From Thermococcus gammatolerans EJ3 (lineage in GTDB: Archaea > Methanobacteriota_B > Thermococci > Thermococcales > Thermococcaceae): DNA of 64,000 bases. The notes beneath the pieces were generated by a model. That model did not search any database, had not been told where the DNA came from, and saw only the letters and a list, made by a program, of their open reading frames with translations. Shown here piece after piece: positions 17,471-30,238 of this stretch. The position numbers and the translations under genes were made by a program. Location of the stretch: positions 1,736,001 through 1,800,000 of the forward strand of contig NC_012804.1 of the NCBI RefSeq assembly GCF_000022365.1. The letters are read 5' to 3'. The stretch's first letter is position 1. Each line of letters opens with the position of its first letter.

Positions 17471-17547
17471 GCCCCGGTAGCCTAGCCTGGCGGGGCGGCG
17501 GACTTGTAATCCGCCGGTCGCGGGTTCAAATCCCGCCCGGGGCTCCA
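17471..17547 (+). tRNA. tRNA-Thr (anticodon TGT)
   Basis: Complete cloverleaf. The 7-bp acceptor stem GCCCCGG pairs with CCGGGGC, the anticodon stem GCGGA/TCCGC encloses the loop CTTGTAA with anticodon TGT at 17505-17507, and the T arm contains GGTTCAAATCC. The 3' CCA is encoded (17545-17547). It reads the ACA threonine codon. Confidence 0.98.
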
Positions 17548-17552
17548 TATTC

Positions 17553-17615
17553 TGGTCCGATGATTGGAAAGAGAGTGAGCTGACGGGATGATGACCGACT
17601 TCTCGCTGAGGACCA
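17553..17615 (+). ncRNA. C/D box sRNA candidate, tandem with tRNA-Thr
   Basis: A 6-bp terminal stem TGGTCC (17553-17558) / GGACCA (17610-17615) closes an ordered set: degenerate box C ATGATTG (17560-17566), box D' CTGA (17580-17583), box C' ATGATGA (17588-17594), box D CTGA (17606-17609). The guide spacers are 13 and 11 nt and the D'-C' gap is 4 nt, all near the archaeal norm for 2'-O-methylation guides. By the N+5 rule the D guide would direct an Am in CGAGAAGTCGG. It starts 6 nt after the tRNA-Thr CCA, so it is likely processed from a tRNA-sRNA precursor. The weak box C is the main doubt. Confidence 0.7.
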
Positions 17616-27191: not shown

Positions 27192-30092
27192 TCACTCCAC
27201 AAACACAGCAGGCTTCAGCGGCATCGCCTGCCTCTTCTTTCCTCCCTTATCTTCTTCGGGGTTGATTATCAGCTCGACGCCGAGCTCCTTCTCTATGAAG
27301 TCCTTGGCTTCCCTCAGCGCCTTCTCTTCGTCTATGCGCTTGACCTCGAAGGCCCTCTCCTTTATAAGGCGCTGTATCAGCTTGCTTATCTCCTTGCCGT
27401 GCTCCCTCATCTCCGGGTCCTTCATCAGCTCTGCCATCGCCGACTTGAAATCCCTCTTCTCGGCAACGACCTCAACGACCTTCCACTTCCACTCAGGGGC
27501 TGTATAAACGTAGACCCTCTCCGCCTTCTCTATCTTAGCAACGCGGATTATCTCCTTGACGTCCTCGATGAAGGCCTTGACGAACTCTTCCTCCGCTTCA
27601 ACAGTCTCGTCCCACCACTCGGGGACTGGCTCTGGCCACTTCGCCAGGCTCACGAAGCTCTCTCCGCCCAGCTTCTCCCAGAGCTCCTCGCTGATGTGTG
27701 GCGTGAAGGGCGCCATGAGCCTGACCCAGACGTCGGCGAGCTTTCTAAGGACGAAGCGCTTTGCCTCGTCGTTCCTGCCCTCGGTTCTGCGCATGTACCA
27801 GCGCAGGTCGTTGAGAACGGTGTAGAACGCCCACTGGACGGCGGTCCTCGTCCTGAACTCCTCAAGGGCCTTGGTGGTTCCCTCGATGGCCTTGTTGAGC
27901 CTGTGGAGCATCCAGCGGTCAATGGCTTTGAGCTCGACGCCCTCTTTGGCTTCATAGCTTGAGAACTCACTTATCAGCTCGTAGAAGCGCTCGACCTGCC
28001 TGCGGAGCTTTCCGACCTCCTTCCTGCGCCAGTCGAAGTCGCTGTCGTGCTCAGCAAGGCCCATTATGTAGAGCCTCACAACATCCGCCCCGTTCTCCTC
28101 GATTGCATCTATGAAGTTCAGCACGTTGCCCTTGCTCTTGCTCATCTTCTGACCCTCGAGCGTTCCAAAGCCGTTCACAGCTATGCCCTTGGGCCAGTGT
28201 TCGCGCCTGAATATCGCCACGTGGTTGAAGATGAAGAACGTCAGGTGGTTCGGGATGAGGTCTTTGGCTGAACAGCGCCAGTCGAGCGGATACCAGTACT
28301 CGAACTCCTCCTTCATCTCGTGGATTATCTCGGCTGGAATCCCAGTCTTCTCGGCAAGCTCTTTCTCCTTCTCCTCGCTGAAGTCCTCACGGAAGATGTA
28401 GTCGAAGAACTCCCTCGTGAGCTTCTCGGGGTCGAGTCTGCCCTCCTCGCGGAGCTTATTTATGTGCCTGCTTATCGTGTAGTAGGCCATGTAGATTGTC
28501 GAGTCGCTCAGGCTCTCGATGACCCACTCCGGGTCCCAGGGCAGGGGCGTTCCAAGGCCGACCTTCCTCGCGCAGGCCTTCTTGTCGAGCCAGTCTATTA
28601 CAGCCTCGAACTGCGCGCGCCTGCTCTCGGGATAAATCGTCATTCTGGCGAGCGCTTCCCTCGCCTTCTCCTTCCACTCGGGGTTACCATAGTCTATGAA
28701 CCACTGGTCGTGGATTATCTTGATGACGGCCTGGTTGCCGAAGCGCGAGATAACGGGCTTCTCCGCGAACTCGTACATTATCTCCGCTATTCCCTTCTCC
28801 TGGAGCTCCTTGGCTATGAGCTCTTTGACCTCCTGGACGGGCTTGCCTTTGTAGGGCTCAACCTTGAAGATTCCCTTGTGGTACTCTGCCTTGTAGATGT
28901 TCTTGGTGGCCTCTTCGAGCTTTTCCCTGTCCCTCTGGCTCTTCACGCCAAGCCTCTCTGCTTCCTCAACTGCCGGGAACTCGCCGTAGCCCTCAAGCTC
29001 TATCAGCGAGATGTAGGTGATGTCCTCTAAGACGCGCGGGTCTATGTCGAACTTGAGGAGCAGTTCGGTTTCCTTCTTCAGGTCTTCGAGGGCTATGTGG
29101 TCAAAGGGAGCATGCGCTGGAACGCTCATGACTACTCCCGTCGCGTTGTCCGGGTCAACGAACTCCGCGGGCAGGATAATGACCTCGTCGCCCGTTACTG
29201 GGTTCTTCACGTATTTTCCTATGAGCTTCTCGCCCTTGAACTCCTCGATGACCTCTATCTCTCTGTCCTGGAAGGAGAGCTTGTAGGCCGCTTCTTTGCT
29301 GATTATCCAGGTCTCTTCCCTATTCCCGCGCTTGACCTTTGCCTTGACGTAGGTAGCGTTGGGGTTGAGCCACATGTTGGTTACTCCATAGACGGTCTCC
29401 GGTCTGAGCGTCGCCGCCGGAAGGTAGATTTTCTCGCCGTTCTCTTCTAAGATGAACTTGATGATGACGTACTCAAGAATCTGGACGTCTTCGCCTTCCA
29501 TTATGTCGTGGTCGCCGAGGGGAGTTCCTACTACCGGGTCCCAGCGGACGCGGTGGGCACCCTTAACGACTAGCCCCATGTCCTTGAGCGTCCAGAACTG
29601 CCACTCCACGAACTTGCTGAAGGGCGGGAAGAGACTGGTAGTGTGGAACTCGCGCGTCCAGTCAACTGAAAAACCTGCCCTGATGAACGTCTCCTTCGCG
29701 GCCTTCATGAAGTACTTGACGATTTCCTTCGGGTCCTCGAACTTCCAGAGAATATCCTCGGGCACCTTGTAGACGTCGCGGTAGATGTGTATGGTTTTGG
29801 GGTCGCGGTTCTTTATGCGCTCTGCTATGCCCACTATCGGAGCCCCTGTGATGTGCCAGGCCATTGGAAACAGCACGTTGTAGCCCTGCATGCGCTTAAA
29901 GCGCGCTATGACGTCGGGAATCGTGTAGGTTCTCGCGTGGCCGACGTGGAGGTGGCCTGAAAGGTACGGGAAGGCGACGGTGATGTAGAACTTCTTCTCC
30001 TTGGGCTTCGCCTTCCTGTCGGGCTCGAAAACCCTCTCCTCAAGCCAGCGCTTCTGCCACTTCTCCTCAATGGCCTTGAAGTCTACTTTCAT
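27192..30092 (-). CDS. leuS: Leucyl-tRNA synthetase
   Basis: Class I synthetase charging tRNA-Leu, 966 residues, archaeal/eukaryotic type. The HIGH motif appears as [10 protein letters not shown] near residue 45 and KMSKS as [10 protein letters not shown] near 640. The CP1 editing domain lies between. I start at the ATG at 30092, after GAGGAGGTTT; a TTG two codons upstream is possible but has no better site. The ribosome site is held in a perfect 6-bp hairpin and the leader is strongly structured (see separate entries). Confidence 0.97.
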
Positions 30093-30096
30093 GTCC

Positions 30097-30113
30097 AAAC
30101 CTCCTCAAGGTTT
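30097..30113 (-). promoter_or_regulatory. Shine-Dalgarno-sequestering hairpin of leuS
   Basis: On the minus strand AAACCT pairs with AGGTTT around a 5-nt loop TGAGG. The ribosome site GAGGAGGTTT is split between loop and 3' arm, so folding would hide part of it. The hairpin ends 4 nt before the start codon. Structure seen; control of translation inferred. Confidence 0.5.
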
Positions 30114-30138
30114 TTCCAAAAGAGCGGGAGTCCAGAAT

Positions 30139-30199
30139 AGGGGGGTTATCGGTAAAATCAGACACCGATGTGATTCCAGCGGAGAAGACACTCCCCCCT
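30139..30199 (-). promoter_or_regulatory. Structured leader of leuS
   Basis: In the predicted leuS leader (transcript start near 30208), AGGGGGG (30199-30193) can pair with CCCCCCT (30145-30139) as a 7-bp outer helix, enclosing a hairpin ATCGGT/ACCGAT (30169-30164 with 30153-30148, 10-nt loop). The hairpin's 5' arm, CATCGGTG, also matches CACCGATG at 30213-30206, which straddles the transcript start and forms a DNA-level inverted repeat. The arrangement looks like a cis-regulatory element; no known riboswitch class is recognised. Confidence 0.5.
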
Positions 30200-30230
30200 C
30201 ATCGGCATCGGTGCGAGTAACGGCTTTGGG

Positions 30231-30238
30231 TATTTAAG
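30231..30238 (-). promoter_or_regulatory. TATA box of leuS
   Basis: CCAAAAAC (BRE-like) followed by CTTAAATA on the minus strand. Centre near 30234 predicts transcription from about 30208 and a leader of about 115 nt, long for this organism. Confidence 0.6.

What the first reader, a model, noticed from the sequence alone, without database searches (positions are those of the whole stretch)
30092..30238. LeuRS mRNA leader folds and hides its ribosome site
A 115-nt leader, long for this organism, contains an outer 7-bp GC helix enclosing a 6-bp hairpin, and then a perfect 6-bp hairpin that takes in the Shine-Dalgarno (AAACCT/AGGTTT). An 8-bp inverted repeat (CACCGATG/CATCGGTG) flanks the transcript start. 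Leader-based control of a tRNA synthetase is common in bacteria (T-box, attenuation) but hardly known in archaea.
Basis: partly seen in the sequence, partly recalled or inferred. Interest (0 to 1): 0.6.

Follow-up and report, generated by a model that had tools for sequence, protein, structure and literature searches.

The report
Archaeal synthetase genes carry leader peptides
In heat-loving Thermococcales archaea, the genes that load leucine, isoleucine, valine and tryptophan onto their tRNAs are each preceded by a tiny gene, starting where the mRNA is predicted to begin and containing the matching codon, which looks like the amino-acid sensor (leader peptide) known from bacteria.

Summary
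It is a 14-16-codon upstream ORF (uORF), M(PM)RGECLLRWNHIGV*, whose start codon sits 23 nt after the TATA box, where transcription is predicted to start (leaderless). In every leuS leader collected from Thermococcaceae, codon 7 counted from MRG is Leu. The paralogous ileS uORF (MRGECFI...) has Ile there in all 46 leaders. valS has a different leaderless uORF with an invariant Val codon. trpS has M-x-GG-x-FW..* with Trp at codon 7 (two species seen). The leuS/ileS signature occurs almost exactly twice per genome in 90 of 94 Thermococcaceae and in none of 21 other genomes of the class. The 7-bp G-run/C-run helix is mostly kept in leuS but barely varies, so it shows no covariation. The inner hairpin and the Shine-Dalgarno hairpin are not conserved. 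Best explanation: translation of the uORF senses charged cognate tRNA and controls the synthetase (leader-peptide attenuation). Ribosome stalling, the direction of control and the switch itself are inferred, and formal coding tests are weak. I found no archaeal precedent in the open-access papers searched.

The parts
30232..30237 (-). TATA-box core TTAAAT of the leuS promoter
   Evidence: 22-26 nt lie between the TATA hexamer and the first start-like codon in all leuS, ileS and valS leaders tabulated
30206..30210 (-). predicted transcription start, at the first uORF codon (leaderless)
   Evidence: TATA is a median 23 bp upstream of mapped starts in T. kodakarensis (PMC4247193); here 23 nt separate TATA and ATG
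30158..30208 (-). uORF MPMRGECLLRWNHIGV* (second in-frame ATG at 30202); conserved core MRG[E/D]x[L/V]L
30182..30187 (-). Leu codons CTT CTC (codons 6-7 counted from MRG); codon 7 is Leu in 75 of 75 distinct leuS leaders and Ile in 46 of 46 ileS leaders
30193..30199 (-). 5' arm AGGGGGG inside the uORF, which a ribosome waiting at codon 7 would cover
   Evidence: the footprint is inference
30139..30145 (-). 3' arm CCCCCCT, pairs with the G-run
   Evidence: 96.7% of cells paired over 30 leuS leaders, no two-sided change
30116..30124 (-). conserved pyrimidine stretch CTCTTTTGG between the helix and the SD
30100..30104 (-). Shine-Dalgarno GGAGG of leuS
30097..30113 (-).
   Evidence: 66% of cells paired
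27192..30092 (-). leuS, archaeal leucyl-tRNA synthetase
   Evidence: NCBIfam TIGR00395 leuS_arch, 1202 bits against a cut-off of 648.5

Best explanation
The leader is a leader-peptide (uORF) control element that measures charging of the cognate tRNA. Transcription starts at or next to the first codon, so the ribosome loads on a leaderless mini-ORF and within seven codons reaches a cognate codon (Leu in leuS, Ile in ileS, Trp in trpS; Val at codon 5 in valS). When charged tRNA is scarce the ribosome waits there. A ribosome at that codon would cover the G-rich 5' arm of the message and keep it from pairing with the downstream arm (CCCCCCU in leuS, GGCACCACC followed by U5 in valS), so the downstream RNA stays permissive and the synthetase is made. 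When charged tRNA is plentiful the ribosome runs on to the stop codon, the 5' arm is freed, and expression is reduced by premature termination or poorer initiation. Shown here: conserved uORF, promoter spacing, matching codon in four genes, family-wide distribution, complementary arms in most leuS and valS leaders. Inferred: translation of the uORF, stalling, direction of regulation, and whether the switch acts on transcription or translation.
For: (1) A DNA search of the own genome with the leuS leader hit one other promoter-leader, that of ileS (identity). (2) uORF codon 7: Leu in 75/75 distinct leuS leaders (CTC 74, CTT 1), Ile in 46/46 ileS leaders (ATC 45, ATT 1); valS uORF codon 5: Val in 50/50. 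(3) trpS uORF MLGGCFWLW* here and MPGGRFWSR* in a second species: Trp at codon 7. (4) 22-26 nt between TATA and first start-like codon in all three large sets, against a published median TATA-to-start distance of 23 bp. (5) The leuS/ileS uORF pattern occurs twice in nearly every Thermococcaceae genome (90 of 94 with a match), in 0 of 21 other genomes of the class, and the control pattern is almost always 0; the valS uORF pattern is found in 79 of 94 genomes, almost always once, control 0. (6) A scan of 800 kb of another species for TATA + leaderless short ORF + separate downstream gene gave 7 candidates, two of them trpS and leuS; reversed-sequence control 0. (7) TyrRS, AlaRS, AspRS, SerRS, ThrRS, GlyRS, HisRS and CysRS of the own genome showed no such uORF on inspection. 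(8) T. kodakarensis has long mapped 5'-UTRs on 11 aminoacyl-tRNA genes (PMC4247193).
Against: Formal coding tests are weak: column permutation p = 0.26-0.29 (leuS), 0.17-0.19 (ileS), 0.06-0.07 (valS); third-position excess only in valS, p = 0.015; gaps in the uORF tails are not clearly multiples of three. The G-run never varies, even at synonymous sites, so a nucleotide constraint exists as well. Cognate codons are only one or two per uORF. The long-range helix is missing in ileS of one genus and in valS of another and shows at most one two-sided change. The uORF is missing or changed in some genomes (leuS in part of genus g3, valS in G002, G003, G093). The second trpS leader has only one Trp codon. 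No transcript, ribosome-profiling or expression data were available.
Confidence: 0.7

Rival explanations
1. The conserved 5' element is a non-coding RNA (or RNA-protein) element, for example a binding site for the synthetase or its tRNA, and the open frame is incidental.
For: Perfect nucleotide conservation of ATGAGGGGGGA including synonymous positions; weak coding statistics; a second shared stretch, UUCUNGG(Y)UUAG, downstream of the uORF in ileS, valS and trpS.
Against: The letters that differ between the paralogous leuS and ileS leaders change exactly the codons for the cognate amino acid, in all genera sampled; valS and trpS reach the same result with unrelated sequences; the start codon is held at the predicted transcription start; no Rfam match.
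Confidence: 0.14
2. The conserved +1 to +30 block is a DNA operator for a transcription factor that overlaps the transcription start.
For: Position at the start site; valS has a dyad CGGTGG-N10-CCACCG in many species.
Against: The valS dyad is broken in genus g4 (GGTGGTGCATATCGTCAATCG) while the Ile-Val codons are kept; the leuS/ileS, valS and trpS blocks share no operator sequence; an operator does not explain the cognate codons.
Confidence: 0.07
3. The uORF is a constitutive brake (or reinitiation device) that lowers synthetase translation without sensing tRNA charging.
For: Short ORFs ahead of an SD commonly do this (general knowledge); the helix and downstream elements vary among genera.
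Against: It does not explain why the invariant codon is the cognate one in four genes.
Confidence: 0.08
4. One reading: hairpins of the leader hide the ribosome site, or a T-box-like RNA binds uncharged tRNA directly.
For: SD predicted mostly paired in leuS leaders (mean unpaired probability 0.19); the hairpin exists in this genome.
Against: SD hairpin 66% and inner hairpin 54% of cells paired over species, no covariation beyond shuffles; fold no better than shuffles; no T-box match; a 6-bp hairpin rich in A-U and G-U pairs is unlikely to hold at the growth temperature of a hyperthermophile (inference).
Confidence: 0.04

Closest known systems
Bacterial leader-peptide attenuators of amino-acid operons and synthetase genes (trpL, leuL, ilvL type; pheST, from general knowledge)
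   Same: Short ORF with cognate codons directly upstream of the gene for the cognate amino acid; downstream arms able to pair with the uORF; in valS a G+C helix followed by U5.
   Different: Archaeal; leaderless uORF starting at the predicted transcription start; one or two cognate codons at a fixed early position instead of a run; paralogous modules on leuS and ileS; terminator/antiterminator pair not shown.
uORF of ilvBNC in Corynebacterium (PMC10272879)
   Same: Conserved uORF upstream of a branched-chain amino-acid gene, found by comparative genomics.
   Different: Bacterial, biosynthesis operon, not a synthetase; the archaeal uORF is predicted to be leaderless.
T-box riboswitches (Firmicutes, Actinobacteria)
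   Same: Biological role: tRNA charging controls synthetase genes through the leader.
   Different: No T-box match in Rfam; sensing would be by a translating ribosome, not by direct tRNA binding.
Long 5'-UTRs of aminoacyl-tRNA genes in Thermococcus kodakarensis (PMC4247193)
   Same: Mapped long leaders (50-300 nt) on 11 aminoacyl-tRNA genes, possibly including some of these genes.
   Different: The main text names no uORF and no mechanism for them; the gene list in the supplement could not be read here.

Membership tests
Leader-peptide attenuator | short ORF upstream of the regulated gene, conserved across species | tested here: met
   leuS and ileS in 90 of 94 Thermococcaceae genomes, valS uORF in 79 of 94, trpS in two species
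Leader-peptide attenuator | codon(s) for the cognate amino acid in the ORF | tested here: met
   codon 7 Leu 75/75, Ile 46/46; codon 5 Val 50/50; Trp codon 7 in 2/2
Leader-peptide attenuator | run of several cognate codons | tested here: not met
   one or two cognate codons only
Leader-peptide attenuator | ORF is translated (coding signature) | tested here: inconclusive
   permutation p 0.06-0.29, third-position excess p 0.015 in valS only
Leader-peptide attenuator | mutually exclusive RNA structures ending in a terminator or SD lock | tested here: inconclusive
   leuS helix 96.7% and valS helix 92.7% of cells paired, almost no two-sided changes; absent from ileS of g4 and valS of g3
Leader-peptide attenuator | starvation-dependent stalling and induction | not testable with these tools
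   needs wet-lab work
T-box riboswitch | match to the T-box covariance model | tested here: not met
   no Rfam hit over the leader in a scan of the whole window
SD-sequestering RNA switch | conserved helix that covers the SD | tested here: not met
   66% of cells paired, no covariation beyond shuffles
Leaderless mRNA | start codon within 8 nt of the transcript start | tested here: inconclusive
   predicted from TATA spacing; start not mapped here

The most novel reading that the evidence does not exclude
Thermococcales have a family of leaderless cognate-codon leader peptides that sense tRNA charging and control several aminoacyl-tRNA synthetase genes (Leu, Ile, Val, Trp, perhaps Asn): a ribosome-mediated attenuation system in Archaea, with a shared downstream RNA element UUCUNGG(Y)UUAG of unknown role.
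Probability: 0.65. Interest if true: 0.9.

Novelty: new variant of a known kind. Interest (0 to 1): 0.82.

Why it matters
How archaea adjust synthetase expression to tRNA charging is largely unknown, and the papers searched here describe no leader-peptide attenuator in an archaeon. If confirmed, ribosome-sensed attenuation exists outside Bacteria, uses leaderless initiation (which makes the sensor start at the mRNA 5' end), and gives a genetically tractable system (Thermococcus kodakarensis) to study transcription-translation coupling in Archaea, where FttA-dependent termination is proposed to police that coupling (PMC11616081). The prediction is sharp: swapping one codon should swap the amino acid that is sensed.

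Tried and rejected
SD hairpin and inner hairpin as conserved structures: rejected on pair counts. T-box or another known RNA family: no Rfam match. Related plasmid sequence: none. More copies of the MRGE uORF in this genome: only leuS and ileS; the other exact 11-mer starts a 475-aa protein. The third pattern hit in one genome (G018) starts a membrane protein and is chance. Column-permutation and indel-phase tests of coding: not decisive. Duplex-energy test against shuffles: significant at 5% in 18 of 44 valS but only 9 of 75 leuS and 3 of 46 ileS leaders, partly because a G-run pairs well with any C-rich shuffle. The downstream motif as a marker in the own genome: two hits, one in the valS leader, the other not recognised as a leader. 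Outside Thermococcaceae: no such uORF in the 21 other genomes of the class.

Full report
WHAT IS THERE. The window lies in a 2.05-Mb Thermococcales genome. leuS is on the minus strand with its ATG at 30092; NCBIfam calls it archaeal LeuRS. A TATA core lies at 30237-30232. The inverted repeats exist as written, but the leader as a whole does not fold better than shuffled sequence, and no Rfam family matches it.

THE CONSERVED CORE IS AN ORF AT THE 5' END. Searching the own genome with the leader found one other leader, that of ileS. Both begin with ATGAGGGGGGAGTGT. Read as codons, leuS gives ATG CCG ATG AGG GGG GAG TGT CTT CTC CGC TGG AAT CAC ATC GGT GTC TGA (MPMRGECLLRWNHIGV*) and ileS gives MRGECFILRFARFEA*. 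Across Thermococcaceae every collected leuS leader encodes MRG[E/D]x[L/V]L and every ileS leader MRG[E/D]xFI, with a variable tail and a stop (8 to 20 codons in the tabulated set; one 25-codon leuS example). Codon 7 is Leu in 75 of 75 distinct leuS leaders (one of them CTT, the rest CTC) and Ile in 46 of 46 ileS leaders (one ATT, the rest ATC), while codon 5 varies freely. The pattern occurs twice in nearly every Thermococcaceae genome (90 of 94 with a match), in none of 21 further genomes of the class, and its reversed control almost never.

OTHER SYNTHETASE GENES. valS has an unrelated uORF, GTG [G/A]TG CCT/CAT ATC GTC CAC CGT ..., with Ile-Val invariant in 50 of 50 leaders. Its pattern is found in 79 of 94 genomes, almost always once, control 0. 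Where an MFS transporter gene lies between promoter and valS, the uORF sits in front of the transporter. trpS of this genome is preceded by MLGGCFWLW* and that of a second species by MPGGRFWSR*: Trp at codon 7 (identity). The distance from TATA to the first start-like codon is 22-26 nt in all leuS, ileS and valS leaders tabulated, and 24 nt in trpS. So these uORFs are predicted to be leaderless. TyrRS, AlaRS, AspRS, SerRS, ThrRS, GlyRS, HisRS and CysRS of this genome looked ordinary on inspection. asnS has a candidate 22-codon leaderless uORF with one late Asn codon, seen in one species only. An unbiased scan of 800 kb of another species for TATA + leaderless short ORF + separate downstream gene gave 7 candidates, among them trpS and leuS; the reversed-sequence control gave none. 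If the four uORFs were dealt to the four genes at random, only one of 24 assignments gives every gene its cognate codon at the invariant position. The trpS case is the most telling, because Trp codons are rare.

STRUCTURE. In leuS the G-run (AGGGGGG, inside the uORF) is complementary to CCCCCCT downstream of the stop codon; 96.7% of cells pair in 30 leaders, but no pair changes on both sides, so this is conservation and not covariation. In valS GGTGGTGCC pairs with GGCACCACC in 92.7% of cells, with one two-sided change (L235), and is followed by a T5 tract that also resembles the TATA box of a proximal promoter. The long-range pairing is missing in ileS of genus g4 and in valS of genus g3, so the uORF, not the helix, is the constant part. 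A further stretch, UUCUNGG(Y)UUAG, follows the uORF in ileS, valS and trpS; its role is unknown.

HOW IT MOST LIKELY WORKS. A ribosome that starts on the 5'-terminal codon meets the cognate codon at once. With an empty A site there, it would cover nearly everything from the 5' end to about 12 nt beyond the P site, including the G-rich arm; a ribosome at the stop codon would release the arm while the C-run lies just ahead of it (in this leader the C-run begins 13 nt after the stop codon; footprint sizes are general knowledge). Stalling would thus prevent, and complete translation permit, the 5' arm:3' arm helix. I take the helix as the low-expression state, because synthetase genes are expected to be induced when charging falls and because in valS a U-tract follows it. 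Whether the output is premature termination or lower initiation cannot be decided here. What is shown: uORF conservation, matching codons, promoter spacing, distribution. What is inferred: translation, stalling, direction, output step.

WEAK POINTS. Substitution tests of coding are not decisive: leuS p = 0.26-0.29, ileS 0.17-0.19, valS 0.06-0.07 by column permutation, valS third-position excess p = 0.015; gap lengths in the tails are not clearly in phase. The G-run is invariant at synonymous sites, so the RNA or DNA is constrained as well. The trpS evidence rests on two species. No transcript or expression data were available; the main text of PMC4247193 reports long 5'-UTRs on 11 aminoacyl-tRNA genes of T. 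kodakarensis without naming them.

NOVELTY. Leader-peptide attenuation is a classic bacterial mechanism. Searches of open-access papers found no archaeal leader-peptide attenuator or archaeal synthetase uORF, but subscription papers and supplements were out of reach. I therefore rate it a new variant of a known kind, in a domain of life where it seems undescribed.

Noticed in passing
L354, L355, L357 (also L228, L230, L232, L236, L247): In several genomes an MFS transporter gene (PF07690) lies between the valS-type uORF and valS. Its open frame is +1 relative to the uORF, runs through the uORF without a stop, and no ATG/GTG/TTG precedes the first membrane segment in the three read in full; a frameshift from the uORF or a non-standard start codon is possible.
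   Followed up: partly
L227 and relatives, about 60-100 nt upstream of valS: valS has a second, proximal TATA (TTTTTAAG) right after the helix 3' arm; the same T-run could be a terminator U-tract. Genomes with the MFS gene keep only the proximal promoter next to valS.
   Followed up: partly
L364 (asnS of the own genome): Candidate leaderless 22-codon uORF MPRLVRIESRLRVLSLWLNRLF* followed by TTGGGTTAG, resembling the ileS/valS downstream element; one Asn codon near the end.
   Followed up: no
leaders of ileS, valS, trpS: Shared element UUCUNGG(Y)UUAG between uORF stop and SD; function unknown, no obvious pairing partner found.
   Followed up: partly
window 17471-17611: A tRNA gene directly followed by a C/D box RNA of family sR58 (Rfam).
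   Followed up: no
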